The notes beneath the pieces were generated by a model that did not search any database, was not told where the DNA came from, and saw only the letters and a program-made list of their open reading frames with translations. DNA of 64,000 nucleotides from Novosphingobium sp. FSW06-99 (lineage in GTDB: Bacteria; Pseudomonadota; Alphaproteobacteria; Sphingomonadales; Sphingomonadaceae): contig NZ_KQ954254.1 of NCBI RefSeq assembly GCF_001519065.1, positions 324,730-388,729 on the forward strand. The letters run 5' to 3'. Each line of letters opens with the position of its first letter. The stretch's first letter is position 1. Positions 24,101 to 38,733 of this stretch are shown here, piece after piece. Position numbers and translations under genes: made by a program.

Positions 24101-24112
24101 CTCGGATTGTGA
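21104..24112 (+). CDS. traI: MobF-family relaxase/helicase TraI (TrwC-like)
   Basis: A 1002-residue bifunctional protein, close to TrwC in length (F TraI is much longer). The N-terminal relaxase has the tyrosine cluster AASYFAKDDYYVGE (Y16, Y22, Y23) that cuts oriT, and the metal-binding histidines in FQHDTSRKLDPQAHLHVV at about 143-160. The C-terminal helicase has Walker A GVAGAGKTTLI near 487, GDRAQLQPIDAGKAF near 596 and MHQAQGMTTDQG near 866. The tail (950-1002) is hydrophilic. It nicks and unwinds DNA for transfer. Confidence 0.96.
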   Translation: MLSVAPVRSAGGAASYFAKDDYYVGEHSSEVSAWGGLAAAELGLVGEVDKLAFENLLNGRLPEGQQVGDPERRRAGMDLTFSMPKSASVLAYVGGDHRLLDAHLQAVRQTMGWVEKNFAEGRVYTENPKGDPVQTGNLAYAIFQHDTSRKLDPQAHLHVVIANLTKVGERWQALHNDQLWKNNSIIGSVYHAALRTLVEELGYRTELTGKHGQFEIDGVPLAVIREFSQRREEVLAKAAEIGIATPQGRDAVVVRTRDAKVNLEDRGALRAEWGERAAGLGFDGQALVAEAQAQAADAGRGAGGLNAIRQIGAVLAQWAERLSEWLGPGDPLVTSGIARLGMSASQVGAEMAVASAIRILGQREAAFPIHEVSRTALDLGIKGVTIEAVEARVQQLADKGQLVFGKSARSDGAITHVTTPEHIAEERRLLAGIDAGRGSSQPIMAADVAATRLQDKAGERPLGQEQLDAGILALASQDRVVVIQGVAGAGKTTLISAMAAALGEDGKQVIGLAQANKMVTMLKDEAGIPAQTLSSFVNDHLRGALAGKGEAFEASKATLQDTVLVLDEASLVANKQMNDLVTIANTMGVSRLVMIGDRAQLQPIDAGKAFSLVQANRPAMARMDVSLRQRTEHMKAVAAMTRTGHFGGAFRVLGERVVSAGVDFREAAARKWLELSAEDRTRTALYASGRDTRAFLNNFVQDGLRAEGTLRGEGLELARVESVNVTREELRYARTYRAGLLLDVSGNARPGGLERGQYRIVEVTKTGRVVLRDEDGRRHSFRPDRLDPNDKRESLSLSERETIRIHEGERVRWTANDKTRGMFNSAEAEIVGITREGVEVRTSEGVNMLLAHGDRMLSRMGLAYAINMHQAQGMTTDQGIGVMHSAERQLSSQRLTHVMATRVRDDITIFTNDRDQLLRSIEANPGDKASALEHIGEKAVDLPGQANRTAKGAGEAASTHTTNRADPFAIDPASLRVEPEKHGSAPKPQLTHVPEKTIELGL

Positions 24113-24120
24113 GGTCAACG

Positions 24121-25659
24121 ATGAATGAAAGTCTGCGCGCTCCCGGCAATCTGCTGACGAATGGCCCTGCAGGAACAGTCGCCGTGGCGCGGACGGTTGG
24201 ACAACAACGTCAGGCGAGGCTGTGGTTCGCGCGGATCGGTGTGTTCTGCCTGGCGTTCTCGGGGGCGCCCGCCGTGGCGCAGACACAGATTAGCGCCTCG
24301 GTGCCCGACGAATTTCCGCATGTGAGCTTCGGCGCCCCAGCGCGTGTTGCGACAACCAGGGTGGATACAGCGCTCGGCGCGACCATCGTGACCTTCACCA
24401 CCGGCGCGCGCCTGATCGTCAAATCCACGCGCTCGGCACCGGGCCAGGTCGTTGTGATCGCATCTTTCGGCGCAGGGCGGTCGGGTGTGCCCGATCACTT
24501 GGTCCACGCGCTTTGGGCGACGACGCTCATGCCACTCGGCGGAACTACGAAGCTCTCCTACGCGGATCTCGATCAATGGCAGAAGACCTCAGGGCACCCC
24601 GTCAACGTGACGTTTGTGGCTGGGGTCTCCGCTTTTCAATTGCAGGGCGATGCGCCGTCCAGTGACTTGAGGACCGAACTGGCTCTGCTGACCGCCTATG
24701 CCCGCGATCCCGGGTTCGGGCCGGAAATGAGCGAGAAGATCGCGATGGTGGGGCCGATGATTGCCACGCAGATCGAGGGCGATCCGGCCGCGGAGTTTGC
24801 GCGTGCTGTGCAGCACGTCATGGTGGGCCTGCGCTACCAGGAACTGCCTGGGCGCGCGGACATCGCAGCGACGACAGGGAAGGAATTGCCTGAACTGCTC
24901 AGGGCATCGCTGGCGATGGCCCCTGATGTCGCGGTGGTGGGAGACATTTCAGTCGAGGACGCCATATGGGCGACCGCAGATACCCTGGCCGCCGGCGATC
25001 TACGGCCAACTGGGCGATGGGTGCGAGCATCGGTCATGCCTCCGCCGCCTAGGCGTGAACCGATCATTGTGGAGCATCGGCGCGCGGAAGGGGATGGATG
25101 GTTCGGGGAATATTGGCGCCTGCCTGATGAAGTCAGAAAGCCGCGCCTTAGCGCGGTGGCAGAGGTCGCCGCAGCGGTCGTCCAGGATCGCTTGCAACGC
25201 GAGGCCAAACTCAATTCATCGCCTGCAACGCAACCGGTTGTCAGTGCTTCGGTGCCGATTGAACTCGCGGGGGGTGCTGCATTCGGCATAGCGATCAAAA
25301 TCCCCCCGTCGGCCGTGACCGCGACCCGAAATCGCATTACCTGCATCGTCGGTGAGCTTGCGCGTGGCTCGATCGAATCAGAACTGTTCAAACGCGCACG
25401 CCTCGCCGTGATCGCCAGCAGGGTCGCCGAGCAAAGCTCCAATGCATGGGCGGCGCGCCAGCTCACCTTGGTCCTGCGTGCTCCCGGCATGACCCAGGTC
25501 ATCCCTCAGGAAAGCGACGTCACCTCGATTACGCCGGCAGCGGTCTCGCGCTTCCTCAAGACCTATCTACTCGGCCAACGGCCGCGTGTAATCACTGCCT
25601 TTCCCGAGGTGCGCGTAGCAATTGCATACGTTTCAAATCCTCCAGGCCGCAAGCCCTGA
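24121..25659 (+). CDS. Exported M16-peptidase-like protein without zinc motif
   Basis: A 512-residue protein with an N-terminal extension, a hydrophobic signal segment (IGVFCLAFSGAPAVA) ending at an AQ cleavage site, then a region resembling an M16 (pitrilysin-type) domain: TFTTGARLIVKSTRSAPGQV, ASFGAGRSGVPDHLVHAL and TLMPLGGTTKLSYADL. The HxxEH zinc motif of active M16 peptidases is absent, so it resembles the inactive C-terminal half of the family. GAGG precedes the ATG. It ends the oriT-traI unit; a periplasmic role in transfer or envelope passage is possible but unproven. Confidence 0.65.
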   Translation: MNESLRAPGNLLTNGPAGTVAVARTVGQQRQARLWFARIGVFCLAFSGAPAVAQTQISASVPDEFPHVSFGAPARVATTRVDTALGATIVTFTTGARLIVKSTRSAPGQVVVIASFGAGRSGVPDHLVHALWATTLMPLGGTTKLSYADLDQWQKTSGHPVNVTFVAGVSAFQLQGDAPSSDLRTELALLTAYARDPGFGPEMSEKIAMVGPMIATQIEGDPAAEFARAVQHVMVGLRYQELPGRADIAATTGKELPELLRASLAMAPDVAVVGDISVEDAIWATADTLAAGDLRPTGRWVRASVMPPPPRREPIIVEHRRAEGDGWFGEYWRLPDEVRKPRLSAVAEVAAAVVQDRLQREAKLNSSPATQPVVSASVPIELAGGAAFGIAIKIPPSAVTATRNRITCIVGELARGSIESELFKRARLAVIASRVAEQSSNAWAARQLTLVLRAPGMTQVIPQESDVTSITPAAVSRFLKTYLLGQRPRVITAFPEVRVAIAYVSNPPGRKP

Positions 25660-25864: not shown

Positions 25865-26872
25865 ATGAAGGGTAATCAGGAGTATTTAGCTGTCGATCTG
25901 GTTGAGCTTGATCGGGAGAACCCGCGCATTCGCCGCTTCCTGGAGGACTACGAGGGCGAGCTCAATGACGACCGAATCGCGCTTGCGCTCGACGTGGGTG
26001 CCGATACGGGCGAGGACGGCGCGGGCGCCACCTCGCCAGACAAGCTGCGTAACTCGATCCTGGCCAACAAAGGGATCATGCAGCCGATCATCGTGAACCG
26101 CCTCGCCGACGGAAGGCTGGTGCGCATAGAAGGCAACACGCGCCTTTGGATTTATCGTGACTTCAACGCCTCAGGCATTGAGGGCGACTGGTCGTCGATA
26201 CCAGCCATCGTCCATGACGGGCTCGAGGGCTTTGAAGTTGATGCGATCCGCCTTCAGGCGCATCTCGTGGGGCCGAGGGCGTGGGACGCCTACTCGAAGG
26301 CGAAGTACCAGTGGGAGCTGCACTATAAGCACCTGATGCCGCTCGACCGGCTTGTCGACCTTTGCGGCGGCGACCGTCGCGACGTGCAGCGGTCTATCAA
26401 TGCCTACGCCGACATGGAAAACCACTTCCGCAAGCTGTTCGAGCCAGGAGAGGACTACAAGACCGAGCGCTACAGCGGCTTCGTCGAACTTCAGAGCCCC
26501 AAGGTGAAGACAGCTATTCTTAAGGCCGGCTTCAACCTCGACGACTTCGCGGCATGGATTAAGGACGAGCGCATCAAGGGATTGATCAACGTGCGGCAAC
26601 TGCCGCGCGTGCTGGCCGATAAGAAGACACGCGACATCTTCGTCAAGCGCGGCATCAGGGCCGCGCTTGACGCGATCGAGAAGCCCGAGGTAAATTCCAC
26701 CCTGCGCGAGGCGAGCATAGGTCAGCTGGCGCGCGTCCTCAGCGAGAAGCTCGATGCTGTGCAGTGGGCGGATATTAAACGCATGCGGGAAAGCGTTGAG
26801 GACGACACCCTGCGTTATCTATTCGACGCGCAGGACGGGCTGGCGAGTTTCCTGGCGGACTTTGAGAAATAG
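25865..26872 (+). CDS. ParB/Srx-like domain protein 1 (cargo island)
   Basis: A 335-residue protein. The N-terminal part reads like a ParB N-terminal (Srx-fold) domain: LVELDRENPRIRRFLEDY, then ANKGIMQPIIVNRLADG and VRIEGNTRLWIYRDF at about 69-105. The remainder is helical with a possible HTH but without the canonical ParB parS-binding pattern. No ParA is nearby, so partition is unlikely. It is the first gene of the coupled operon 25865-34018; a GGGGGGA ribosome site precedes the ATG. In modification systems such domains act as CTP/ATP-dependent switches or nucleases; which applies here is unknown. Confidence 0.8.
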   Translation: MKGNQEYLAVDLVELDRENPRIRRFLEDYEGELNDDRIALALDVGADTGEDGAGATSPDKLRNSILANKGIMQPIIVNRLADGRLVRIEGNTRLWIYRDFNASGIEGDWSSIPAIVHDGLEGFEVDAIRLQAHLVGPRAWDAYSKAKYQWELHYKHLMPLDRLVDLCGGDRRDVQRSINAYADMENHFRKLFEPGEDYKTERYSGFVELQSPKVKTAILKAGFNLDDFAAWIKDERIKGLINVRQLPRVLADKKTRDIFVKRGIRAALDAIEKPEVNSTLREASIGQLARVLSEKLDAVQWADIKRMRESVEDDTLRYLFDAQDGLASFLADFEK

Positions 26873-27274
26873 GTGTCGGGTGAATCAGCGCTTCACATTC
26901 GGCTCGTCGAGTGCCTTGAACGGCACGTGCACGAACGCCACCCGACCGAGCGCGGGCTGCTGATGCTGTTGGACCACGACAGCTACGGGCGCGACCGGCC
27001 GCACCGCGTAAACGGCTACTGCCCAGATCTGTTTGCGTCGGACCTGCCCGCCACATTCGAGATCCTCGGCGAGGCGAAGACCGGGCCGGATCTCGAGCGT
27101 CCCCGTTCGCACGCCCAGATAGCAGCGTTCCTCGACCACCTGTCGCTGCAGGCCTGCGGCTGGTTCTACCTGTGCGTGCCGCCGCTTTCCGTCGGGCGCG
27201 GTCGCCAGCTCCTCAAGCGTCTCCGCACTCCGTCCCGCGCGCTGGTGAACGTGGAGGTCATTACGCTTGGCTGA
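26873..27274 (+). CDS. Small PD-(D/E)xK nuclease-like protein
   Basis: A 133-residue protein starting with GTG directly after the stop codon of the ParB-like gene. The core YCPDLFASD (D52) followed by FEILGEAK (E67, K69) fits the D...ExK active site of restriction-type nucleases, with a helix (HAQIAAFLDHLSLQA) after it. The size suits a single-domain endonuclease. It overlaps the following SNF2 gene, so the two products are likely partners. Nuclease activity is inferred from the motif only. Confidence 0.65.
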   Translation: MSGESALHIRLVECLERHVHERHPTERGLLMLLDHDSYGRDRPHRVNGYCPDLFASDLPATFEILGEAKTGPDLERPRSHAQIAAFLDHLSLQACGWFYLCVPPLSVGRGRQLLKRLRTPSRALVNVEVITLG

Positions 27275-28757
27275 GGGTCCATTACGCATGCGCCGGGACG
27301 ACCGCCTCAACCTAGCTGCGGTCCACAGTGGCTTTACCTACCAGCTCCAGGCTGTCGAGGCAGTCAAGGACATGGAGTATGCCGCCCTCTTTCACGAGCA
27401 GGGCCTAGGCAAGACCAAGATCGGCATCGACCTGGCTCTTGGATGGCTGAAGGAGGACGTCATCGACACCATCCTGTTCGTCACCAAGCGCGGCCTTATC
27501 GCCAACTGGTCGGAGGAGATGCAGGCGCACTCACACCTCAGGCCCCGCATTCTGGACCAAAACCACTCGTCGAACTTCTTCGCGCTGAACAAGTCGCTTC
27601 CGGTCCTGCTGACGCACTACGAGGTGTTGAAGTCGGAGGAGAGGCGGCTGGCGTTGTATCTCCGGACCCGCCGTGTGGGCGTGATCCTTGACGAGGCGCA
27701 CAAGATCAAGAATCCCGACACCGACATCGCGAAGGCGCTGCACCGGCTAGGTCCCTCGTTCGTCCGTCGCGTGATCATGACAGGCACGCCGGTCGCCAAC
27801 CGACCCTACGACATCTGGTCGCAGATATACTTCCTCGACCACGGCGAGGCGCTCGGCGGCGACTTCGAGGAGTTCAAAGCGGACCTCGACCTCACCAATG
27901 ACCTATGGAAGGACGAGGGCCGACGTGATGCGTTTGCGCGAGCGGCCGGCGCCGTGTTTGGCAGAATCTCGTCATTCTCCGTCCGGGAGACCAAGGCTAG
28001 TGCCGGGATCGAGCTGCCCGAGAAGGTGATCGAGAACGTTCCGGTCGAGCTCGCACCGCGCCAGCGCGAGATCTACGACGAAATCGCGAAGTCCCTTCGG
28101 ACAGAGGTCGTGGTCGACGGTCGCCTTGTGGAGGACGACGCGGAGTCGATCCTTAAGCGCCTGCTGAGACTCGTGCAGGTCGCGTCCAATCCGCGGCTGA
28201 TCGACGAATCCTACGACGAGACCCCTGGGAAGCTACCCGTGCTGGAGCGGCTCCTCGAGCGTGCTGTCCAGGTTGAGGACGGGAAGGCCATCGTCTGGAC
28301 CAACTTCATCGAGAACGCCGACTGGCTGCAGCGCAAGCTCGACCGCTACTCGCCCGTGAAGGTGCACGGAAAGGTCGAGATGGAGGATCGCAACGCGGCG
28401 ATAGCCCGCTTCAAGGGTGATCTGGCGTGCCGCGTCCTCATCGCGACGCCTGGTTCCGCGAAGGAGGGACTGACGTTGACAGTCGCGAACCACGCCATCT
28501 TCTACGATCGCGGCTTCAGCCTCGACGACTACCTCCAAGCGCAGGACAGGATCCACCGGATCTCGCAGCAGCGGACCTGCTACGTCTGGAACCTCGTCGG
28601 CGAACGCACCGTCGACGAATGGGTGGACGCGCTGCTGGGCGCCAAGCGTCTAGCGGCGCAGCTGGTGCAAGCGGACGTTGATCAGGCCCATTACGACGCG
28701 GCGGCCGATTACGACTTCGGCCGGATCGTTCAGCAGGTGCTTGGGGGACAGCATTGA
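27267..28757 (+). CDS. SNF2-family DNA translocase/helicase
   Basis: A 496-residue superfamily 2 ATPase: Walker A HEQGLGKTKIG (about 43-53), DEAH box ILDEAHKIKNP (142-145), IMTGTPVANRPYD, motif V region ATPGSAKEGLTLTVANH, and motif VI QAQDRIHRISQQR (about 425-437). SNF2 proteins translocate on duplex DNA; in BREX-, DISARM- and Dpd-type systems they couple DNA sensing to modification or cleavage. The start is TTG 27267 (GGAGG 9 bases upstream) or ATG 27288. Overlaps link it to both neighbours. Confidence 0.92.
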   Translation: MAEGPLRMRRDDRLNLAAVHSGFTYQLQAVEAVKDMEYAALFHEQGLGKTKIGIDLALGWLKEDVIDTILFVTKRGLIANWSEEMQAHSHLRPRILDQNHSSNFFALNKSLPVLLTHYEVLKSEERRLALYLRTRRVGVILDEAHKIKNPDTDIAKALHRLGPSFVRRVIMTGTPVANRPYDIWSQIYFLDHGEALGGDFEEFKADLDLTNDLWKDEGRRDAFARAAGAVFGRISSFSVRETKASAGIELPEKVIENVPVELAPRQREIYDEIAKSLRTEVVVDGRLVEDDAESILKRLLRLVQVASNPRLIDESYDETPGKLPVLERLLERAVQVEDGKAIVWTNFIENADWLQRKLDRYSPVKVHGKVEMEDRNAAIARFKGDLACRVLIATPGSAKEGLTLTVANHAIFYDRGFSLDDYLQAQDRIHRISQQRTCYVWNLVGERTVDEWVDALLGAKRLAAQLVQADVDQAHYDAAADYDFGRIVQQVLGGQH

Positions 28758-29770
28758 TGGGGACTGACGGCTTTGCCGGGATGATGCGGCTGCGCGGGAT
28801 GGAGGTGCCGACGGTCACGCGCGAGGTCCCTGTCCGGGAACTGACCTTTTATCCCGAGAACCCCCGCATCTACTCGATCGTCTACGCCGACGGGCAGAAG
28901 CCGTCCCAAGCCGATATCCTGACGCGATTGCAGGCGCTCGAGCACGTGCGCCAGCTCGTCCAGGACATACGCGCGAACGGCGGGCTCATCGATCCGCTGA
29001 TCGTGCGCCAGGGTGACATGGTCGTTCTGGAGGGCAACAGCCGCCTAGCCGCCTATCGCCACCTCGCGAAGGAGGACCCGATCAAGTGGGCGGAAGCGAC
29101 CTGCACCCTCCTCCCTGCGGACATCGACGAGAACCTCGTGTTCGCCCTGCTCGCTCAATACCATGTGAAGGGGAAGAAGGACTGGGCACCATACGAGAAG
29201 GCGGGGTTCATCTACCGGCGCTTCAAGCAGCAGAACGTCGACCTGCAGGTCGCCGCGCCGGAGCTCGGGATCACGCGCGAGGAGGCCAAGCATCTCATCG
29301 CGGTCTATGAGTACATGATCGGCAGCGATGACCAGGACCCCGCACACTGGAGCTACTATGACGAGTTCCTGAAGTCCCGTAAGATCAAGAAGGCGCGTGA
29401 CGAGGTAGCCGGCTTCGATGAGTTCGTTGTCCGTGAGATCAAGTCGGGTCGCATGGGCAAGGCGATGGACCTTCGTGACAAGCTCCCCGTAATCTGCGCC
29501 GGGCAGCCCAAGATCCTCAAGCGCTACATTTCCGGCGCATACGATCTCACCGAAGCCTACTCGCACGCGGTGACCGCAGGCGGCGAGCACCACGCGCTCA
29601 ACCGGCTGAAGCGCTTCCGCAAATGGCTCGCGGATACGGAGACCGAGGACGACCTCCTTGAGGCGCCTAAGGCAATTCGCGACAGCATGCAGTACGAGCT
29701 TAAGGAGATCGAGCGAAAAACAAAGAAACTCAAGGAGCTGATCGAAAAGAAAAAGTTCGACATCGAATGA
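28757..29770 (+). CDS. ParB/Srx-like domain protein 2 (cargo island)
   Basis: A 337-residue protein whose ATG overlaps the SNF2 stop codon (TGATG). It contains a ParB-type N-terminal domain: ELTFYPENPRIYSIVYAD, then IRANGGLIDPLIVRQGD and VVLEGNSRLAAYRHLAKED. The C-terminus is a basic coiled coil (ELKEIERKTKKLKELIEKKK). It shares the EGN(T/S)RL signature with ParB-like protein 1 but is otherwise divergent, so the operon holds two different Srx-fold proteins. The coiled coil suggests dimerisation. Role unknown. Confidence 0.8.
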   Translation: MGTDGFAGMMRLRGMEVPTVTREVPVRELTFYPENPRIYSIVYADGQKPSQADILTRLQALEHVRQLVQDIRANGGLIDPLIVRQGDMVVLEGNSRLAAYRHLAKEDPIKWAEATCTLLPADIDENLVFALLAQYHVKGKKDWAPYEKAGFIYRRFKQQNVDLQVAAPELGITREEAKHLIAVYEYMIGSDDQDPAHWSYYDEFLKSRKIKKARDEVAGFDEFVVREIKSGRMGKAMDLRDKLPVICAGQPKILKRYISGAYDLTEAYSHAVTAGGEHHALNRLKRFRKWLADTETEDDLLEAPKAIRDSMQYELKEIERKTKKLKELIEKKKFDIE

Positions 29771-29869
29771 GGCGCTTGCGGCCAGCCGTGCATCGGTCGG
29801 GATCGACAGAGGCGTTCGCCATTGCTATTTGCATTCCTGTGCTGCAGTTTCGGCAGTATGGGGGTGCGG

Positions 29870-30880
29870 ATGATTCACGAGACCACATTACCGTGCATGC
29901 GCGGACGCTCGCTTGACCGAACGGTCCTGCTAGGGTTTGCGACAGCGCGCGCTTTGCACTCGGCGAGCTTTGCAGACGTCCTCGACGAGGCTTCTGGGCG
30001 CGGCTATCAGCGTCGGCTCAACTCGCGCCACAGTCTCGACTTCCGGCGCTATGTGCAGGGTCCGGGCAGCGCCACCATACCGCTCACCTTCAACCTCCGC
30101 GGTAAGGACGGTGACGGCTGGCGCGTAGAGGCGCGCGACGGCTCGACGCTGTTGCATCTTCATGATGGCGCCCGGCCACTAGCGCAGGTCGACTGCCAGC
30201 ACCGCCTCGGACATCTCTCCGACCTAGAAGTCGAGCTGCCATTCATGACTTTCATCGGCCTGTCCGAGCGCGAGGAAATGGAAATCTTCGGCGTCATCAA
30301 TGGCAAGGCTAAGGGGCTGTCCAACAGCCTGCTTGACTTCCACGATGCTCAACTGTGCTCGGATATCGCCAGCGAACGGCCCGAGCTCTTGGTTGCCCTG
30401 CACCTCAAGAACGAGCCGAGCTCGCCTTGGTACAACCGGCTTGATCTGGGCGGGAACCAGGTGTCCGGACTTGAGCGCCGCGCCTCTTTGCGAACGATGC
30501 AAAAGGCTTGCCGTATACTTACCAAGCGACTTAAACCCGCGGCTGCGGATGAGGTGGCCCGCATCGCGCACGACTTTTGGCGCGCAGTCGCGCTCGTGAT
30601 GCCCGACGCCTTTTCGAAGCCTCGCAGGAGTCTCGTGACGAAGGGCATCGGCGTCTACGCCCTTTCTGAGCTGGCAGCCGATTTCGTTCAAGAGGCTCCC
30701 GCTGGCACAAGGTGCGACGTGGCCTACTTCACAGCGATTATAGGCGATCTCGCCCCCCTTCTCGACTGGAGCAACGACGGGCCGCTCGGGGGTTTGGGTG
30801 GCGAGGGCGGCGCAACCCGTGCCGCCGACATCCTGCGCCAGCTCCACCGCCGTCCTCGTCTGGCGGTGGCCAATGGCTGA
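29870..30880 (+). CDS. DGQHR-domain (DndB-like) protein
   Basis: A 336-residue protein with the DGQHR-family signature in the form QVDCQHRLGHL (residues 106-116; Gly changed to Cys), followed by LPFMTFIGLSEREEMEIFGV and INGKAKGLSNSLLDFHD, all typical of DndB-like proteins. DndB regulates phosphorothioation in Dnd systems, and related proteins occur in other DNA-modification loci. The ATG at 29870 follows a GGGGG; ATG 29858 is an alternative. It overlaps the radical SAM gene by 8 bases. No dndA/C/D/E gene accompanies it. Confidence 0.8.
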   Translation: MIHETTLPCMRGRSLDRTVLLGFATARALHSASFADVLDEASGRGYQRRLNSRHSLDFRRYVQGPGSATIPLTFNLRGKDGDGWRVEARDGSTLLHLHDGARPLAQVDCQHRLGHLSDLEVELPFMTFIGLSEREEMEIFGVINGKAKGLSNSLLDFHDAQLCSDIASERPELLVALHLKNEPSSPWYNRLDLGGNQVSGLERRASLRTMQKACRILTKRLKPAAADEVARIAHDFWRAVALVMPDAFSKPRRSLVTKGIGVYALSELAADFVQEAPAGTRCDVAYFTAIIGDLAPLLDWSNDGPLGGLGGEGGATRAADILRQLHRRPRLAVANG

Positions 30881-32489
30881 TCGAAATATCCTCCTCATTG
30901 AGCCCGACTACAAGAATAAGTATCCCCCGCTAGGTCTGATGAAGATCGCGCAGTATCACGGGCCAAACGGCAAGCGGGACAATGTGCGCTTCGTAAAGGG
31001 GCGCGACCGGTCGGCGCTGAACCAGGCGTGGGACCGCATCTACGTTACGACGCTGTTCTCGTTCGAGTATCCGAAGATCGCGGAGACGATCGATTTCGCC
31101 CTGCAGGTCGCGAACGGACAAGCGGACAAGGTTTTCGTCGGCGGCATCGCCGCGTCGCTGATGCACCAGCGCTTCCTAGACGAGCGCCGCTGGCATGGCG
31201 TGCGCTTCATCAAGGGTCTCCTGACGGCACCGCCGGCCCAGTCGCTACAGCTGGACGATTTCGCCGAGGAACTCTATTCCGATGACCTGTCGGGTAAGCC
31301 AATCGAGGATTTGATCCCGGACTACTCCATCCTCGACCAAGTCGAGTATCGCTACCCTGTCCGCGACGCCTACTTCGCCTACACCTCGCGCGGCTGCATC
31401 AGGAAATGCCATTTCTGCGGCGTGCCCAAGCTCGAGGGGATGCAGAGGGACACGGACTCTCTTACCGCTACGGTGCGCGCCATCGACGAACTCTACGGCC
31501 CGCGCAAGGACCTCATTTTGATGGACAACAACGTGGTGGCGTCACCGCGTTTCAAGGAGATCATTGCCGAGATCCGCGACCTAGGCTTCACGCCTGGCGC
31601 GAAGCTTCTACGTCCCGGCACGCGGGTTCCGGTCCAGCGCCGCGTCGATTTTAATCAGGGGGTCGATGCGCGGATCTTATGCAAAGATAAGATGTATCTC
31701 CGCGAGCTTTCGTCGATCGCATTGCGCCCGCTAAGGATTGCCTTCGACCACCTCGGCGTCCGCAAGCCGTATGAGCAGGCGGTAAGGTATGCGCACGAGT
31801 TCGGACTGCATGAGCTGTCCAACTACATGCTCTACAACTTCCACGACGGTCCTGACGACCTGTTCGAGCGGATGCGCCTCAACGTCACGCTAAACGAGGA
31901 GCTCGGGATCCGCATCTGGTCGTTCCCGATGCGCTTCCAGCCGACGGACCGCCCGGACCGCGGACATATCGGAGACAAGTGGACGCGGTTCCAGCTCCGG
32001 TCGATGCAGATCATCCTGCAGGCGACCCACGGCGTTGTCAGCGGCGAGCCGGAATTTTTCAAACGCGCTTTCGGTGACACGTTCGCCGACTACGAGCGGA
32101 TACTTGCGATGCCGCACGACATCATCTTCAACCGCGAGTATTACGAAAACGGCCCCGGTCGGGCTGAATTCACCGACTTCCAGCGGGCGTTCAACCGCCT
32201 TTCGGAGACCGACCGCGCCGAACTTCTTGGTCTCCTGTCATCGCGGGACCCGCGGCATTTCCATACGCTCCGAGACGATGCCGATTCCGACGCCTTGCGC
32301 GCCGTCCTGCCGTTCTACGTGCCGCGGCCGAAGGAGGAGTGGCTGACAGTCTGGCAGAGCAAGCGGGACGCCGTCTCGGCCGAGGTCAACAGCGGCTTGG
32401 CCGAGGAAGAGCGGGTCGAGGATGCAGGGCTCGACTACGAGGACACCTCCGAGACACCTGACGCAGTGATGGCCCCGATTGCTGCTTGA
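30873..32489 (+). CDS. Radical SAM protein with B12-binding-like N-terminal domain
   Basis: A 538-residue protein. The N-terminus (NILLIEPDYKNKYPPLGLMK) and VFVGGIAASLM look like the Rossmann-type cobalamin-binding domain of class B radical SAM enzymes. The 4Fe-4S cluster motif CxxxCxxC is exact: SRGCIRKCHFCGVP (C175, C179, C182). The TIM-barrel continues with LILMDNNVVASPRF and NFHDGPDDLFERM. An Asp/Glu-rich tail of about 60 residues ends it. Within an operon of DNA-processing proteins, a radical modification of DNA bases is an attractive inference, but the substrate could also be RNA or protein. Confidence 0.85.
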   Translation: MADRNILLIEPDYKNKYPPLGLMKIAQYHGPNGKRDNVRFVKGRDRSALNQAWDRIYVTTLFSFEYPKIAETIDFALQVANGQADKVFVGGIAASLMHQRFLDERRWHGVRFIKGLLTAPPAQSLQLDDFAEELYSDDLSGKPIEDLIPDYSILDQVEYRYPVRDAYFAYTSRGCIRKCHFCGVPKLEGMQRDTDSLTATVRAIDELYGPRKDLILMDNNVVASPRFKEIIAEIRDLGFTPGAKLLRPGTRVPVQRRVDFNQGVDARILCKDKMYLRELSSIALRPLRIAFDHLGVRKPYEQAVRYAHEFGLHELSNYMLYNFHDGPDDLFERMRLNVTLNEELGIRIWSFPMRFQPTDRPDRGHIGDKWTRFQLRSMQIILQATHGVVSGEPEFFKRAFGDTFADYERILAMPHDIIFNREYYENGPGRAEFTDFQRAFNRLSETDRAELLGLLSSRDPRHFHTLRDDADSDALRAVLPFYVPRPKEEWLTVWQSKRDAVSAEVNSGLAEEERVEDAGLDYEDTSETPDAVMAPIAA

Positions 32490-32491
32490 GA

Positions 32492-34018
32492 ATGAGTAAG
32501 ATGGCACCACACGAAAACCCGACCGCCAGCGACGTCCGCGTGGGCAAGGACCTACTCGAGCTCGTCTCGTCGGCGATGTATGTCGAGCCGTTGACTGCCT
32601 ATCGCGAGTACCTGCAGAACGCGGCGGACTCGATTGACGAGGCGCGACGAGTCGGGCTGCTCGGCGCGGGTGAACCCGGCCGTGTAAACATTTTCCTCGA
32701 TCAGGCGGCGCGTGTCGCCCGCATACGCGATAACGGTGCCTCGATTCCGGCGGAGGAGGTCGTCGGCCGGCTGCTCGCTCTCGGCGGCAGCAGCAAGCGT
32801 GGCACCGATGCCCGCGGTTTTCGGGGCGTTGGCCGGCTCGCCGCTCTTGGATATGCCCAGTATCTCACTTTCCGCGCTCGCGCCCAGGGCGAGGATACCA
32901 TCACCGAAATCACATGGGATGGTCGCCGTCTGCGCTCTGCTCTCGCCGACGCTGGTTCCGGCGACCTCGCGTCGGTAGTCGCAGCGGTCGTCGATGTGCG
33001 TACTCTTCCGGCCGGGGACGAGGAGCTGCGGTTCTTCGAGGTCGAGATCGGACGGATCGTTCGCCAGCGCGGCGACCGGCTCCTCGATCCGTCGGCTGTC
33101 GAGGGCTACTTGGCCCAGATCGCGCCGGTGCCGTTCGCAGACGAGTTTCATCATGGCGCCGCCATCGCAGACGCTATCCGTGCGGCCGGTCCGCTCGGGG
33201 AGCTGGAGGTCACGGTCGACGGGGGCGCGCCGATAAAGCGTCCGCACCGGGACGCCATTCCGCTCGGGGGCAGCGTATCCACGATTCACGAACTCACCCT
33301 GTTTGAGGTGCCTGGGATGGACGGCGGCTTGGCAGCCGTCGCCTGGTTTGCGCACCACGACTACAAGGGTGCCATTCCTTCGGGGGCGCTTGTGAAGGGA
33401 GTCCGTGTCCGGGTCGGCAACATTCAGATCGGTGATCAAGCCATCCTGGAGCAGATTTTCCCAGAAAGCCGCTTCAATTCGTGGACGATCGGCGAGGTGC
33501 ATGTTCTCGACCGCCGTATCGTGCCAAACGGTCGTCGTGATCAGTTCGAAGCTAATGCCCACTACGCAAATCTGGTGAATCAACTCTCGCCGGTCGGTCG
33601 TGACGTCGCAAGACGTTGCCGCACGAGTTCGAACCTTCGGTCCAAGTTGCGGGACTTTGAACTTGCAGTCGGGGACGCACAGGGGCGGATCGCCATCATC
33701 GGACAGGGGGCCATGTCGGCTGGCGCTCACGCCGCGGAGATCGGCCGGGTGCATCAATCCGTCCTGCGCATGCGCAAAGCGATGGAGGCCGACGGAATTG
33801 AGGAAACCGTTCGCGATAGCATGGCAAGCAGGATCGCGGCCGTCGAGGCGGAACTCGATCGGGTTACCGTGGGCGTTACTACCGATCCACTCGATGTCAT
33901 TGCCGAGGGCGAGCGCGATACCTACCGGCAGGTCTTTAACCTGATCTACGAGTGTTCTGCGAACCGGGTGGCCGCTAAGTCTCTTGTCGACAAAATTATA
34001 CAGCGGCTCGCCGCTTAG
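32492..34018 (+). CDS. GHKL/Hsp90-like ATPase, plus-strand copy
   Basis: A 508-residue protein with a clear N-terminal GHKL ATPase fold: N-box YREYLQNAADSIDEARR (E39, N43), G1 box RIRDNGASIP (D80, G82), and G2 box GFRGVGRLAALGY (109-121). The middle part resembles Hsp90/MutL S5-like folds. ATP-driven clamping around a partner or DNA is the family's usual behaviour. It is the last gene of the plus-strand operon, starting 2 bases after the radical SAM stop. A second, minus-strand GHKL gene converges on it with a 23-base gap. Confidence 0.87.
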   Translation: MSKMAPHENPTASDVRVGKDLLELVSSAMYVEPLTAYREYLQNAADSIDEARRVGLLGAGEPGRVNIFLDQAARVARIRDNGASIPAEEVVGRLLALGGSSKRGTDARGFRGVGRLAALGYAQYLTFRARAQGEDTITEITWDGRRLRSALADAGSGDLASVVAAVVDVRTLPAGDEELRFFEVEIGRIVRQRGDRLLDPSAVEGYLAQIAPVPFADEFHHGAAIADAIRAAGPLGELEVTVDGGAPIKRPHRDAIPLGGSVSTIHELTLFEVPGMDGGLAAVAWFAHHDYKGAIPSGALVKGVRVRVGNIQIGDQAILEQIFPESRFNSWTIGEVHVLDRRIVPNGRRDQFEANAHYANLVNQLSPVGRDVARRCRTSSNLRSKLRDFELAVGDAQGRIAIIGQGAMSAGAHAAEIGRVHQSVLRMRKAMEADGIEETVRDSMASRIAAVEAELDRVTVGVTTDPLDVIAEGERDTYRQVFNLIYECSANRVAAKSLVDKIIQRLAA

Positions 34019-34041
34019 TTGCGGCAGCCCGCCGCGGCAGG

Positions 34042-35730
34042 TCAGGTCTGCCGTCGTGCCAGCTCCTCTTCGATGCGGCGCCGTACGCGGCGGTAGAGTG
34101 CGGGGTCGAGCATATCGGCCAGTGTCTCGTAGACAACAGACATCGCGTCGGCGGGCGACATGGTGATTGCGGTCTCGCCCGGACGAACGACCTCCACGTC
34201 CTCGATCCGCCGTCTCGTCGAGTTGACCCGCGCGGTCAGCGCCGTCAGGGCTTCCGCGTCTTCCGCCGAAATGAGGTCTTGGCTGGCCGCGTCCGCGATC
34301 TCACCGCTGACGACACGGGCCTCTGCGATCAGCTCCTGCTGCTCGTCCATAGTGATCGTCGGCCCGATCGCTTGTGACGCCGCTGCCAGGTAGGTCTCTA
34401 CCTTTTCTGCCAGCTTCTTGATCTTGGAGCGGCCGCTGGAGGCCTTGTATGTCTTCGACGCCAGGTCCTTCAGCGTGGGCGACAATTCCGCCTGGATCGC
34501 GAGCCAGGTGGCGTTTTCCTCGAAGCCGTCCCGGCGCGCGTTCGGGATTGCGTCGGCGCAGACGACATGTATCTCGCCGATGTGCCACTCGTTGAAGCGC
34601 GCGTATGTCGGCCTGATCGAAGCGAACATGCCATCTGTGATGACGGTGCCGTCGATCTGGATGTCGCGCACGCGGACGCGCAGGCCCCGGCCTTCGTCGG
34701 TGAGCGCTCCGAGCACCTGATGCGTTCCGATCCAGCCCCACCATTTCGGTGGCGTCGCCTCGTCGCGTATGCCGCGGATATTCTGGAGCTTGACGGCGTT
34801 CCGATTGGCTGGCTTCACCGAACTTAAGTAGGGCTTTCGAATCTCGTAGGTGTCGATGGTGATCGCCGGCTGTGGCGGCGCGCCGTAGCCTGACCCAACC
34901 TCCTCGAGTGGATCATCCGCGACGTCGAGCCCATCTTCAGTCTGGCCCCCCTCGTCAATCCTCCTGTGCACGAGGTTGATCTCAATTGGCTCGAGTGGCT
35001 GGCCGGCGTCGATGGCCAGCGCGCGGATCCGCTCGGTGAAGGGGAAGTCCTTGTTGAAGTCTGCAGGGGAGGTCTGGACCAAGTAGGTTCGCAGCAGGGC
35101 GACGTCCGTGATCTCCTCAGGAGCCTCGCTGAGCCCATCCATGATCACCCGCATGTAGTGGCTTGGCGCTTCCGATGGCGGGACCGCCCGAGGCTTGTCG
35201 GTGACCGCTGCCGCTAAAAGGTCCTGGATGTCCTCACCGGCGCTGCGGTCGGGGTCCATCGCCGCGCGCAGCCGTACGCAGTCGAATGTGACCGTCGTCT
35301 CGGTCGTCTCCCCGGCGTATTTCGTCACGAAACGCAGCTCGTCGCAATAGGCAATGCCCGCCAAGCGGCCGATGCCGCGGAAGCCAGCCTGCTGCCGGCG
35401 ATCCTTGCTCGATGCGCCCACCGAGGAGAGCACGCTCCAGGCCGTCGCCGCTGAGATGCCTGTGCCGTCGTCCTCGATCGTCAAGGTGCTGGCGAGGTCG
35501 TCCAGGGTGATGGTCACGGATCCCTTGGCCGGCTCCAGCCACTTGCTCCGTCTTGCCCGCCGAATCGAATCATACGCGTTCTGGATATATTCCCTGATGG
35601 CGTGCCGTGGCTCACCGTACATGCCGACAGTGAGCGTTTCGAGCACGTAGCTGCCGATGTGGGCGCGCCGAACCACCGGCTGGGCGCCCGATGCGGCGGC
35701 AGGTGCCGTAGGTTGCTGGGTGGTAGTCAT
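34042..35730 (-). CDS. GHKL/Hsp90-like ATPase, minus-strand copy
   Basis: A 562-residue protein with the same domain order as its convergent neighbour: N-box IREYIQNAYDSIRRARR (47-63), G1 IEDDGTGISAATA (86-98), G2 GFRGIGRLAGIAYCD (116-130), then a long middle domain and a coiled-coil C-terminus. The ATG at 35730 overlaps the stop of the upstream PIN gene (ATGA), so that start is preferred over 35760. Sequence identity to the plus-strand copy is limited to the ATP-binding boxes and nearby residues, so the two are distant paralogues rather than a recent duplication. Confidence 0.87.
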   Translation of the reverse strand: MTTTQQPTAPAAASGAQPVVRRAHIGSYVLETLTVGMYGEPRHAIREYIQNAYDSIRRARRSKWLEPAKGSVTITLDDLASTLTIEDDGTGISAATAWSVLSSVGASSKDRRQQAGFRGIGRLAGIAYCDELRFVTKYAGETTETTVTFDCVRLRAAMDPDRSAGEDIQDLLAAAVTDKPRAVPPSEAPSHYMRVIMDGLSEAPEEITDVALLRTYLVQTSPADFNKDFPFTERIRALAIDAGQPLEPIEINLVHRRIDEGGQTEDGLDVADDPLEEVGSGYGAPPQPAITIDTYEIRKPYLSSVKPANRNAVKLQNIRGIRDEATPPKWWGWIGTHQVLGALTDEGRGLRVRVRDIQIDGTVITDGMFASIRPTYARFNEWHIGEIHVVCADAIPNARRDGFEENATWLAIQAELSPTLKDLASKTYKASSGRSKIKKLAEKVETYLAAASQAIGPTITMDEQQELIAEARVVSGEIADAASQDLISAEDAEALTALTARVNSTRRRIEDVEVVRPGETAITMSPADAMSVVYETLADMLDPALYRRVRRRIEEELARRQT

Positions 35731-37496
35731 AGGCGTCGAAAGCCTTTCGTGTTCGACCATTTCAGTTTGGAGGCGTCCGGCTCATCGAAGTTCAGCCAGT
35801 CCTCTGGGACGGAGTATCTTGCAGCCACGACGCTCCTGAGGGCGGCCACGGTTCCACGGCCGAAGCCGTCGTCCCCCTCCTGCGGAATCAGCACACTCAG
35901 GGTATCCGCATCCCCTGCCTCGATGTCTTCCAGAAGGTCACGCTCGGCGACGCGCATCCCGAGCAGCACGGGCGAGCGCCCGCGCACCCGCTCGAGGTCG
36001 AGGGTGACCGCGATGGCGGGCCGACTGCCAGCGAGGGGAAGCGCCAAATACCGTTCGACGTCCGCTTGCAGCGCTTCCACGATAAGCGCCACGGCGGGAC
36101 CCAGGGATTGGCGCTCGGCGGCCGAGAGCGCTGCTTCCGCCCCTAGGCCGAGCGGCAGGCGTCGACGCTTGCCGGCCGGCTCGAAGTAGATGCCGTGCAA
36201 CACTCCGGCGAAGAACGCGAGGGCCTCCGCGGAGGCCGCCCCATCGACGGAGGTGTTCGCTATAAGATTCAGGGCACTCTGGAGGCCGCCGAGCGCAGCC
36301 TCGCGCACCGACTTGCCCAGCGCAAACCATTCCGAGGGGGTGAACGGCGGATCCCGCTGCTCCCCTAGTCCGGCGATCGCCGCCTCCTGACGAAAGGGAT
36401 CGGCCGAGGCGAGGTCTGCCAACGTGGCTGCGAACACCGGATTTGGCTGTGCAGGCGGCGCCATCAGCTCTGCGAGCGCCGAGATCGCTGCTTGCTGCGC
36501 ACCGCCTTGGTGTTTCGCCGCGTCGTGTTCGGCGTTCGGCGGTGGACGCCTCCTTGGCGTTCTGGCGGCGAGCTCCTCGGCGGTGGGCGCCATCAGTGGC
36601 TGCACGGCCCTGAAGAGCTGCGGCACCGGCAGCCGTGCGAACCGGTGCATGACCACGATCAGCATCTCGACACTGACGACGTGCAGCTCGGTCATATTGG
36701 TATGTGTCTTCAGCTCGTGGAGCAGTAGCGGCGAAGGCAGGACCGTCTCGAATTCGCGCTGGTTTCCTTGGCGACGACCGGCGGCGTCCAGAATCCCCGC
36801 GGGCCTATAGACCCAGTCGTCCTTGTTGTCGTTCGTAAGCACGATCACTGAGCCCGCGGCCTTGCCATGGCAGTGATTGACGACCTCGTTCCAGAGCATG
36901 CGGTCGCCAAAGCGGTTCTCAGGCTTATTGTGGTCGGCGAACCCGGGCGGTATCCGACCCTCGACGCGCGCGGCGACCTCGGTATCTATCCACTGCAGGA
37001 TCGGGAATATGTTACTGTCGAGGACGTGATCGTTGATGAAAGGTAGGATCTCGGCTGCGAGGTCCTCCCAACCGGTCGCGGGCGTCATCCCGCATAACCG
37101 CATCAACTCCTGGCCGAGACGATCGATCTCCGCCTGGTAGGTCGCGAGATTGGCGAAACCGCGCACCTGCCGGTCGTCAGCCGCCATCGCGACATGCGCC
37201 TTAGCCTGCTCGATCGACTGCTGCAGACTTTTGATTGCCGCCTTCAGGGGCGTGAGGGCCGCCTGGTTCGATCTTAGATAACCGTAGAGCTCGTGGGCCG
37301 CCCACACCGGGACGAGGAAGCGCGTTCCGAGCATTGCGACCCAGTCGAAGAACTCTCTGCGAGGCTCCCTCCCGAGACTGAACAGCCAGAACAGGACATT
37401 CGTGTCCACAAACACCAGCGTGGTTGGTTCGGCGATCGCGTCTGCGATCTCCTGAAACAACTCGTGCTGGGCGATCGTCGTCGGGTGGAGCTTCAC
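35727..37496 (-). CDS. PIN-like (DUF4935-type) protein
   Basis: A 589-residue protein whose N-terminal domain is PIN-like: LVFVDTNVLFWLFSLG (D31), acidic Glu in VPVWAAHELYGYLR, and IVLTNDNKDDWVYRP near residue 218, a pattern known from the DUF4935 family. The remaining 350 residues have no identified domain; they include an Ala/Pro-rich linker and a helical region. GGGGAGG precedes the ATG. It is coupled by a 4-base overlap to the GHKL ATPase gene. An RNase effector controlled by the GHKL partner is a reasonable inference. Confidence 0.78.
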   Translation of the reverse strand: MKLHPTTIAQHELFQEIADAIAEPTTLVFVDTNVLFWLFSLGREPRREFFDWVAMLGTRFLVPVWAAHELYGYLRSNQAALTPLKAAIKSLQQSIEQAKAHVAMAADDRQVRGFANLATYQAEIDRLGQELMRLCGMTPATGWEDLAAEILPFINDHVLDSNIFPILQWIDTEVAARVEGRIPPGFADHNKPENRFGDRMLWNEVVNHCHGKAAGSVIVLTNDNKDDWVYRPAGILDAAGRRQGNQREFETVLPSPLLLHELKTHTNMTELHVVSVEMLIVVMHRFARLPVPQLFRAVQPLMAPTAEELAARTPRRRPPPNAEHDAAKHQGGAQQAAISALAELMAPPAQPNPVFAATLADLASADPFRQEAAIAGLGEQRDPPFTPSEWFALGKSVREAALGGLQSALNLIANTSVDGAASAEALAFFAGVLHGIYFEPAGKRRRLPLGLGAEAALSAAERQSLGPAVALIVEALQADVERYLALPLAGSRPAIAVTLDLERVRGRSPVLLGMRVAERDLLEDIEAGDADTLSVLIPQEGDDGFGRGTVAALRSVVAARYSVPEDWLNFDEPDASKLKWSNTKGFRRL

Positions 37497-37661
37497 GCGC
37501 TACCACCTCCCCACTGATGTGGCAGGCTTGCTGCACTGTCGATCAACATCCGATCATCTTTCGCGACCCCCCACCTGCCCATACCGAGAAGTTGCCCTTA
37601 TCCCAACTGCTGTCGATCCAATCCTGACACTTCGACCCGGGCCGCCCGGTGCAGCATCGAT

Positions 37662-38348
37662 CTAGGAGAAGTTTTCCATGCGCTTGTTCAAGAGGTCATT
37701 AGCGAACGCCCGGATCAGCAGCGATTCCAACTGCCCGATCATGCCATCCGCAACCTCGTAGGCGCTGACGTATGTGGCTAGCTCGTGCAGTCGGACATTC
37801 ACCGTTCGAATCTGGCGGCGCAGCTCGTCCGATGTGCGGAAATCCTGACGGCGCTCGGGGTGGTTCACCCGCCGGATATTCTGCAGTTGGCGGTCCCGAT
37901 TGAACACCAAGTTAATCTCTTTCCAAAGCGATTGGCTCCTCGCCTTGCCCGCGTACAGCGCACGGCCCCGGCTATCGTGGAAGATGTAAATGCCATGGTG
38001 GGCCTCCAGCTCCTTGCGCAGCCCCAAAAGATATGGGTGCTCGAAGCCGTCCACCTTTGCCTGGAAGATACAGTAGTTCTCCCCGGAGCCAATCCGAGCC
38101 GGGGTCAACTCGAAAAACTCTACGATCGGACGCAAGGCCGACAACTGAGTTCGATTGGCCGATACAGACTCGACCTTGAGTATAAGGCCCGCCATCTGGT
38201 CCGCAGTGACCTCGTCGCGCGCTTCCCAGTTTGATAACGCCTGAACGGTTACGCCTAACCTCGCCGCTATGGCGGCCTTGGTTGGCTGTTTGCCAAGCTC
38301 GCGCTCCATCCGCTTTCGGATGCTCGCAATAAATTGAGCGCCAGTCAT
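37662..38348 (-). CDS. Helix-turn-helix and GIY-YIG nuclease-like fusion protein
   Basis: A 228-residue protein. Residues 1-60 form an Xre-type HTH (KAAIAARLGVTVQALSNWEA), and residues 117-150 match a GIY-YIG nuclease core: HHGIYIFHDSRGRALYAGKA with a downstream KEINLVFNRD. The C-terminus is helical. The combination suggests a DNA-binding protein that either cleaves at its site or uses the GIY-YIG fold for binding. ATG 38348 is chosen because GGAGG lies 8 bases upstream; ATG 38363 and an ATG at 38417 are alternatives. It is separated by 165 bases from the PIN gene and may regulate the island. Confidence 0.7.
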   Translation of the reverse strand: MTGAQFIASIRKRMERELGKQPTKAAIAARLGVTVQALSNWEARDEVTADQMAGLILKVESVSANRTQLSALRPIVEFFELTPARIGSGENYCIFQAKVDGFEHPYLLGLRKELEAHHGIYIFHDSRGRALYAGKARSQSLWKEINLVFNRDRQLQNIRRVNHPERRQDFRTSDELRRQIRTVNVRLHELATYVSAYEVADGMIGQLESLLIRAFANDLLNKRMENFS

Positions 38349-38733
38349 TTTCTCCGCCTCCATACCGTGAGTGCCACATCGTCGGCGCAAATCAAGATTT
38401 GTATTCGTGATCTGCATTGAACGCTGCGAGCACGCCGGCCTAAGACAGTGATCCGTAGTAGATCGGCCAATGTATCTACGCTGCTATGCAGTTTGGTTCG
38501 TCGCTTCGGTCCTCCGTGGCCTGCGCCAGGAAGCGCGCGAGGGCGCCCTTACATTGGCGCGTCGCGAAACACACCCAGCCCGCTGTTCGTTGTGTAGATG
38601 GTTGCGGGGGTGATCCTCAACATGACAAGCCCGGGTAATACGTTCGCCGTCGCAATCGCTGAAAAAAGCTGTATTTAAGGTGCTTGCCGGTCATCTTGTT
38701 TGCGTTTCGTTCCAACAATGCTATTGGAACAGT
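38349..38733. other. 385-base boundary region between cargo island and tra operon end
   Basis: No gene is supported. It should contain the promoter of the HTH/GIY-YIG gene (minus) and that of the small membrane-protein gene (plus). It has an inverted repeat GTAGAT-N10-ATCTAC (38458-38479) and a perfect operator-like repeat at 38709-38730. It is the likely right edge of the cargo island. Confidence 0.5.
38709..38730. promoter_or_regulatory. Operator-like inverted repeat before the 38734 gene
   Basis: GTTCCAA (38709-38715), 8-base spacer, TTGGAAC (38724-38730): a perfect 7-bp inverted repeat ending 3 bases before the ATG at 38734. A protein bound there would block ribosome access or elongation. 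Which regulator binds is unknown. Confidence 0.6.

What the first reader, a model, noticed from the sequence alone, without database searches (positions are those of the whole stretch)
25865..38348. Candidate undescribed DNA-modification/defence island: ParB-like, nuclease, SNF2, ParB-like, DGQHR, radical SAM and two GHKL ATPases
Seven plus-strand genes, mostly overlapping or nearly abutting (the largest gap, about 100 bases, precedes the DGQHR gene), encode a set with Srx/ParB folds, PD-(D/E)xK, SNF2, DndB-like, radical SAM and Hsp90-like ATPase proteins. A converging minus-strand set adds PIN, GHKL and HTH/GIY-YIG proteins. Each class is known in restriction, phosphorothioation or Dpd-type systems, but I know of no named system with this combination; the core partners of Dnd (DndA, C, D, E), BREX (PglX, BrxC) and DISARM (DrmA, B) are not seen. 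The island lies between transfer genes, a usual cargo site.
Basis: partly seen in the sequence, partly recalled or inferred. Interest (0 to 1): 0.93.

Follow-up and report, generated by a model that had tools for sequence, protein, structure and literature searches.

The report
Radical-SAM-centred modular DNA defence island
This mobile DNA carries a gene set, found in many bacterial phyla and matching no named system in our searches, that likely guards bacteria against foreign DNA and is predicted to mark its own DNA with a radical-chemistry enzyme instead of the usual methyltransferase.

Summary
Genes A-I (25865-37496) are real and recur. They form three modules: EFG (DGQHR, radical SAM, Hsp90/MORC-like ATPase), ABCD (ParB, PD-(D/E)xK, SNF2, ParB) and HI (GHKL ATPase, PIN). 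In 90 non-redundant loci fetched by F, G lies beside F in 84. Gene distances correlate inside modules (F-G 0.83, C-A 0.92, H-I 0.91) and little between them (F-C 0.18, F-I 0.04): modules are exchanged. Of 12 plasmid records with full-length F, 7 carry ABCD genes, 5 a nuclease-DGQHR protein (K), none both. Key clue: where K occurs without F-G, 7 of 8 loci have a D12 DNA-adenine methyltransferase beside it and the eighth an F-family rSAM; a PD-Lambda-5-type ParB has a D12 methyltransferase nearby in 5 of 6 genome loci, and an F-family rSAM in two viral contigs. F thus sits where a DNA-modifying enzyme sits. I infer a restriction-modification-type defence with a radical-SAM-made mark. No modification, cleavage or phage resistance is shown, and rSAM-linked K copies lack the usual catalytic lysine. 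PADLOC, Pfam and NCBIfam match domains only. Gene J is not part.

The parts
25865..26872 (+). A: ParB/Srx-fold protein (EGNTR motif), module ABCD
   Evidence: ParB_N E 8e-4; G90 N91 T92 R93 at least 93% conserved in an alignment of 46; 7 of 7 plasmid records with an A match also carry F
26873..27274 (+). B: small PD-(D/E)xK nuclease, module ABCD
   Evidence: no library match; P51-D52, E67-A-K69 at least 93% conserved in an alignment of 51
27267..28757 (+). C: SNF2-type helicase/translocase, module ABCD
   Evidence: SNF2-rel_dom E 7e-26, Helicase_C; GLGK and DE box conserved in an alignment of 52
28754..29770 (+). D: second ParB/Srx-fold protein (EGNSR motif), module ABCD
   Evidence: weak match to PD-Lambda-5_A, E 1e-6; E93 G94 N95 R97 conserved in an alignment of 63; 7 of 7 plasmid records with a D match also carry F
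29822..30880 (+). E: DGQHR (DndB/DpdB-like) protein; the start may be 29858 or 29870
   Evidence: TIGR03187 102 bits; DCQHR conserved in an alignment of 44; distance correlation with F 0.57
30873..32489 (+). F: radical SAM enzyme with a B12-binding-type N-terminal domain; core gene
32486..34018 (+). G: Hsp90/MORC-like GHKL ATPase; core gene
34042..35760 (-). H: second GHKL ATPase, module HI
   Evidence: HATPase_c_3 E 8e-11; distance correlation with I 0.91
35727..37496 (-). I: PIN_8-domain nuclease-like protein, module HI
   Evidence: PIN_8 E 5e-26; D31, E69, D198, D223, D227 conserved in an alignment of 27

Best explanation
The island consists of three separately inherited gene modules with a radical-SAM enzyme (F) and an Hsp90/MORC-like ATPase (G) as the constant pair, and it likely works as a restriction-modification-type defence in which F would mark the carrier's DNA and the ParB/nuclease/SNF2 and PIN/ATPase modules would attack DNA that lacks the mark. 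Shown: the gene set, its recurrence, the module exchange, the conserved active-site motifs of F, G, B, C and I, and the exchange of F-family rSAM with D12 DNA-adenine methyltransferases beside two kinds of ParB-superfamily partner. Inferred: that DNA is F's substrate; that E (DndB/DpdB-like) and G help F find or open DNA, as DpdB is said to help DpdA; that SNF2 (C), guided by ParB NTP switches (A, D), scans DNA and calls nuclease B; that HI is a second or back-up effector. The mark's chemistry is open. F has no conserved cysteines beyond the rSAM triad and has a B12-binding-type domain, so a methyl or other carbon-centred change is likelier than sulfur insertion.
For: G beside F on the same strand in 84 of 90 non-redundant loci, all fetched by F; distance correlations F-G 0.83 (n 84), C-A 0.92 (39), C-D 0.89 (44), C-B 0.85 (44), H-I 0.91 (19), against F-C 0.18 (45), F-H 0.23 (29), F-I 0.04 (19), C-H -0.16 (8). 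The 12 plasmid records with full-length F are the 12 with full-length G; 7 of them match A and D, the other 5 hold full-length K. K without F-G: D12 methyltransferase with DPPY beside it in L203-L207 and L209 (L203 and L204 are 96% alike) and in L359, a genome hit searched for after the idea was formed; L208 has an F-family rSAM instead. PD-Lambda-5_A-like ParB: D12 beside it in 4 and one gene away in 1 of 6 genome loci (3 of the 5 found by the D12 HMM, all 5 homologous at E 1e-72 or better); F-family rSAM beside it in L103 and L104. PD-Lambda-5 protects E. coli from phages and is called an RM+Abi-like system (passages, PMC9519451). A wide D12 HMM hits none of the F loci (L001-L109 and window) except L104, about 7 kb from the pair. 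Folds.
Against: No modified base or phage phenotype has been measured. Slot exchange is shown for K and a PD-Lambda-5-type ParB, in few loci, largely viral contigs, and not for ABCD, whose nearest case is L120 (ABCD beside a divergent rSAM, no G). One of the six PD-Lambda-5_A-like genome loci (L247) has no D12. D12-linked K copies keep ECK (5 of 5 aligned); rSAM-linked ones have ECT or ECR (8 of 8), so K may not cut in that setting. Twelve of 90 loci show F-G, with or without E, and none of ABCD, H or K; some are on cut contigs or have other modules. PIN gene I matches 5 plasmid records without F, one of them over 73%. Between-module correlations are low but not all zero (F-A 0.44, F-D 0.33). 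Distant phage relatives of F lie near terminase genes or in rSAM tandems. The best structural neighbours of F act on protein, tRNA or small molecules, not DNA.
Confidence: 0.55

Rival explanations
1. F modifies something other than DNA (tRNA, a protein, or a nucleotide made into an antiviral, viperin-like), and the other modules are sensors and effectors of an abortive-infection response.
For: Best structural neighbours of F act on tRNA, proteins or small molecules; PIN domains often cut RNA (recalled); Hsp90-like G could be a chaperone; rSAM-linked K lacks the usual nuclease lysine.
Against: F-family rSAM takes the place of a DNA-adenine methyltransferase beside two kinds of ParB-superfamily partner; the ABCD module is DNA-directed by its domains (SNF2, PD-(D/E)xK, ParB).
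Confidence: 0.2
2. A modification-dependent (type IV-like) system: F-G and the ParB proteins sense or strip foreign DNA modifications, and no self mark exists.
For: GmrSD, a type IV enzyme, joins ParB and a nuclease domain (passage in PMC12839542); DGQHR-domain proteins occur on 30 plasmid records that lack full-length K.
Against: A constant enzyme in the modification slot with exchangeable partner modules resembles R-M, Dnd and Dpd layouts; the D12 enzymes that take the same place would be plain DNA methyltransferases.
Confidence: 0.12
3. Plasmid or conjugation housekeeping (partition, entry exclusion or regulation), since the island lies between transfer genes and has ParB domains.
For: Location between a TrwC-type relaxase and TraG/H/F/N/U.
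Against: Relatives lie on plasmids, in genome contigs of many phyla and in viral contigs; presence is sporadic: 3 of 298 other genomes of the phylum sample, 1 of 198 of the family, 0 of 384 of the class at E 1e-60.
Confidence: 0.06
4. A chance or loose defence-island assembly with no common function.
For: Modules are exchanged, and flanks hold some other defence genes.
Against: F beside G in 84 of 90 loci and very high within-module correlation; ABCD or K, never both, on the 12 plasmid records.
Confidence: 0.03

Closest known systems
MORC/paraMORC restriction-modification systems (Iyer 2008, PMC2292703; abstract and passages seen)
   Same: GHKL-S5 ATPase with SWI2/SNF2 helicase and restriction-type nuclease; proposed ATP-driven DNA looping
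   Different: Those neighbourhoods include DNA methylases; the term radical SAM does not occur in that paper's text; here F is taken to fill the modification place
Dpd (7-deazaguanine) systems
   Same: DGQHR partner (DpdB-like match for E and in K) and SNF2 helicase resembling DpdE
   Different: No DpdA match among the ten proteins; E scores 41 bits against the DpdB cut-off of 300
Dnd phosphorothioation
   Same: DndB-like DGQHR protein; modification module decoupled from the restriction module (abstract and passages of PMC10853773)
   Different: No DndA, C, D or E match among the ten proteins; F is a true radical SAM fold
PD-Lambda-5
   Same: ParB-type protein beside a modification enzyme; D weakly matches PD-Lambda-5_A
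   Different: PD-Lambda-5 has a methyltransferase; here radical SAM plus GHKL and further modules
Cobalamin-type and MTTase-type radical SAM enzymes (AprD4, MgmA, TsrM, MiaB)
   Same: Rossmann-type N-terminal domain plus rSAM barrel
   Different: 13-16% identity in those four alignments; no conserved cysteines for a second cluster; defence-like gene context

Membership tests
Radical SAM superfamily | CxxxCxxC cluster motif and rSAM barrel | tested here: met
Cobalamin-dependent radical SAM | binds cobalamin in the N-terminal domain | not testable with these tools
   fold is of that type; a Pfam B12-binding match (E 1e-6, below its cut-off) only for the relative in L208
Dnd phosphorothioation | DndC PP-loop enzyme with DndD and DndE | tested here: not met
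   no such match among the ten proteins of the island in PADLOC; rest of the genome not searched
Dpd | DpdA tRNA-guanine-transglycosylase-like enzyme | tested here: not met
   none among the ten proteins; DpdB equivalog cut-off missed, 41.4 of 300 bits
BREX | PglX, PglZ, BrxC | tested here: not met
   none among the ten proteins; only weak or helicase-domain BrxB/BrxH matches
DISARM | DrmA, DrmB, DrmC | tested here: not met
   only helicase-domain similarity of C to DrmD
Zorya | ZorA-ZorB motor pair | tested here: not met
   only helicase-domain similarity of C to ZorD
Classical R-M | SAM-dependent DNA methyltransferase | tested here: not met
   no methyltransferase match among the ten proteins; no D12 hit in the F loci L001-L109 and window except L104; other methyltransferase classes were not sought in those loci
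PD-Lambda-5 | A (ParB-type) plus B (D12 methyltransferase) | tested here: not met
   D matches A weakly at 25.6 bits; no B among the ten proteins
MORC/paraMORC R-M | GHKL-S5 ATPase with SF2 helicase and nuclease | tested here: met
MORC/paraMORC R-M | DNA methylase in the operon | tested here: not met
   none among the ten proteins
R-M-type logic (works like) | self mark made by the system itself | not testable with these tools
   needs nucleoside LC-MS/MS; slot exchange supports it

The most novel reading that the evidence does not exclude
A new class of restriction-modification: the self mark on DNA is made by a radical-SAM enzyme, giving a carbon-centred base change that no methyltransferase can make, with an Hsp90/MORC-like ATPase as its DNA-handling partner and with plug-in restriction modules (ABCD, K, HI, HerA-type) that all read the same mark.
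Probability: 0.42. Interest if true: 0.93.

Novelty: new variant of a known kind. Interest (0 to 1): 0.8.

Why it matters
In the defence-paper passages I read, the modification enzymes are methyltransferases, deazaguanine-inserting enzymes or sulfur-inserting enzymes. A radical-SAM maker of an epigenetic DNA mark would add a new chemistry, probably a new modified base, and a family of marker and reader modules spread over many phyla. It also gives a concrete function to test for DGQHR, ParB-fold and Hsp90-like proteins in defence islands.

Tried and rejected
Rejected: J (HTH/GIY-YIG) as a part. It has 328 homologues at E 0.001 or better, but among the 110 sequences searched it was found in the window alone. 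Rejected: one indivisible seven-gene system. Rejected: membership in Dnd, Dpd, BREX, DISARM, Zorya or PD-Lambda-5. Tried with little gain: two viral scans for PD-Lambda-5_A-like ParB gave only the contigs already known. Searches returned 8, 80 and 31 loci; I mapped 33 of these 119 (all 8, the first 17 and the first 8), and the SNF2 hits beyond the first nine loci carry no other gene of the set. Phage rSAM neighbours near terminase genes or in tandem did not settle the substrate. The defence-flank test was modest: 130 flank ORFs (of 140 picked from 366) gave PADLOC matches at E 1e-30 of eight kinds, at most nine members among the 25 of 33 families shown; 130 control ORFs (all that were picked, from 198) from 19 single stretches of related genomes gave two kinds, two members; the control is not matched by taxon. 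Papers opened for other leads and found unrelated: PMC13391042, PMC10250203 (passages). A DUF5131/TcmP search gave mostly unrelated papers.
Full report
OBSERVATION. Searches list the frames; searches give domain-level matches only. I call the genes A (ParB), B (small nuclease), C (SNF2), D (ParB), E (DGQHR), F (radical SAM), G (GHKL), H (GHKL, minus), I (PIN, minus) and J (HTH/GIY-YIG, minus). A-G overlap or abut except for a gap of about 50-100 bases before E, depending on E's start. The surroundings are F-type transfer genes: TrwC-type relaxase and TrwB-type coupling protein to the left, TraG, TraH, TraF, TraN and TraU to the right. The window lies in a 440,894-base contig of a 4.79-Mb genome in which F occurs once.

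RECURRENCE. A protein search with F scored 7,998 candidates, of which 7,887 pass E 0.001; the 120 listed are 75-93% identical to F. A scan of genome contigs found 243 relatives among 277 pattern matches; the best 80 loci were kept, and record titles name Pseudomonadota, Acidobacteriota, Verrucomicrobiota, Nitrospirota, Dehalococcoidia, Gemmatimonadota, Latescibacterota, Binatia and Acidimicrobiia (many are MAGs). Viral contigs gave 14 loci. Presence is sporadic: 3 of 298 other genomes in a phylum sample at E 1e-10, 1 of 198 in the family, 0 of 384 in the class at E 1e-60.

MODULES. HMMs built from the window genes and from K of plasmid pNL1 were run on 110 sequences, the window and L001-L109. 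Five short duplicate loci and two with only partial F were left out, and 103 loci were thinned to 90 (F under 92% identical). Since all were fetched by F, F is present by construction. G lies beside F on the same strand in 84 of 90; the six without G are two remote plasmid relatives (L007, L008), a contig end (L056), a remote viral relative (L109), and L103 and L104. Partners: 44 loci have the ABCD set or its BCD variant with several ParB copies, 13 have K, 15 have H with or without I and neither of the others, and 12 have F-G (with or without E) and none of these. Distance correlations are high inside modules (F-G 0.83, C-A 0.92, C-D 0.89, C-B 0.85, H-I 0.91), middling for F-E (0.57) and F-K (0.62), and low between modules (F-C 0.18, F-H 0.23, F-I 0.04, G-C 0.15, G-H 0.19, C-H -0.16; F-D 0.33 and F-A 0.44 are the highest for ABCD). 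On plasmids, 17 of 72,556 records match F, 12 of them over at least 80%. The same 12 are the ones with full-length G; 7 of them match A and D and the other 5 hold full-length K; all 12 match I, over 32-99% of its length; 11 match H, the twelfth record's only H match being the G gene itself. Outside them, I matches 5 further records, the best (Pseudomonas luteola, 73%) beside a transposase and without H or F, and H and G match a few over at most 25%. Several of the 12 records are versions of one plasmid, so the independent cases are fewer. Further gene clusters recur around F-G: a HerA/DndH-like ATPase with H (L039, L058, L068, L071, L072), a DUF5131 protein in three of these and in L022, and two other proteins upstream of H or G (L012, L052, L085, L087, L105, L106).

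SLOT EXCHANGE. A viral scan with K returned 31 loci, seven with full-length K; none of the seven has a detectable G. Six (L203-L207, L209; L203 and L204 96% alike) have a D12, Dam-type DNA-adenine methyltransferase with DPPY directly beside K; the seventh (L208) has an F-family rSAM beside K, then an integrase. As a fresh test I searched 398 genomes with these K proteins: one hit at E 1e-60, and it too has a D12 methyltransferase directly upstream. L103 and L104 hold a ParB protein, matching PD-Lambda-5_A at E 4e-32 for L103, directly upstream of an F-family rSAM. The PD-Lambda-5_A model found 6 of 299 genomes; a D12-type methyltransferase lies beside the ParB gene in four and one gene away, in the opposite direction, in a fifth; the sixth (L247) has none. 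Three of these five were found by the D12 HMM; the other two were first seen by their DPPY motif and are homologous to them at E 1e-72 or better. A wide D12 HMM finds nothing at E 1e-4 in L001-L109 and the window except one gene in L104, about 7 kb from its ParB-rSAM pair. Two kinds of ParB-superfamily partner thus go either with a DNA methyltransferase or with an F-family rSAM. This is my main ground for placing F at the DNA-modification step. Both sets are small, and the rSAM cases come from viral contigs.

AGAINST. In D12-linked K the nuclease stretch ends in ECK (5 of 5 aligned); in rSAM-linked K it ends in ECT or ECR (8 of 8). The K nuclease may be changed or dead in rSAM loci, or its lysine may have moved. 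The window itself has ABCD, not K; for ABCD the nearest exchange case is L120, where ABCD sits beside a divergent rSAM with CxxxCxxC and no G. Remote phage relatives of F lie beside terminase genes or in rSAM tandems.

LITERATURE. Searches: DGQHR with radical SAM (1 paper, ProPhylo, listing only), DGQHR alone (6, listing), anti-phage/radical SAM/ParB/GHKL (4), radical SAM/DNA modification/defense system/SNF2/DndB (5), radical SAM/Hsp90-like ATPase/anti-phage (25, 20 listed), PD-Lambda-5 (3), thymidine hypermodification with radical SAM (1), MORC/R-M (24, 10 listed) and a last mixed search (21, 12 listed). Nothing in these listings describes this gene set. I read passages, not whole texts, of PMC10853773, PMC12839542, PMC9519451 and PMC2292703. 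Subscription papers are mostly not held, and DefenseFinder was not available.

VERDICT. An undescribed (by these searches), recurrent, modular defence-type island with a radical-SAM/GHKL core; R-M-like working is inferred, with slot exchange as the strongest sign. It resembles R-M, Dnd or Dpd in layout but is a member of none by the tests run.

Noticed in passing
window 37662-38417: J: HTH plus GIY-YIG-type protein of a widespread family (328 homologues at E 0.001), found beside F-G in no other locus mapped.
   Followed up: partly
L203-L207, L209, L359: A compact two-gene pair of D12 DNA-adenine methyltransferase and a PD-(D/E)xK-DGQHR protein of about 770 aa, which looks like a simple R-M pair with a ParB-fold restriction partner.
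   Followed up: partly
L039, L058, L068, L071, L072: F-G with a HerA/DndH-C-terminal-like ATPase cluster (annotated in L039), with a DUF5131 protein in L039, L058 and L071 (annotated in L058): another partner module.
   Followed up: partly
L012, L052, L085, L087, L105, L106: F and G preceded by a protein of about 580 aa (weak mads_8 match in L012) and one of about 385 aa without library match; H also in the first four.
   Followed up: no
L267, L290: Viral contigs with two radical SAM genes in tandem, the second 62% identical between the two.
   Followed up: no
L029 16.4-18.0 kb (same contig as L015); also L018, L025: PD-T7-1 family anti-phage gene close to the island (E 1e-171 in L029; same sequence cluster in the others).
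   Followed up: no
window 24109-25659: 516-aa gene between relaxase gene and island with no Pfam match at E 0.001.
   Followed up: no
window 44264-48007: TraN-like protein of 1247 aa with many repeats of a YSCPxGxxLSGxxC type unit before the TraN domain.
   Followed up: no
L005 (Roseomonas mucosa p2-AD3): Modules EFG and ABCD converge, while HI-type genes lie about 90 kb away on the same plasmid.
   Followed up: no
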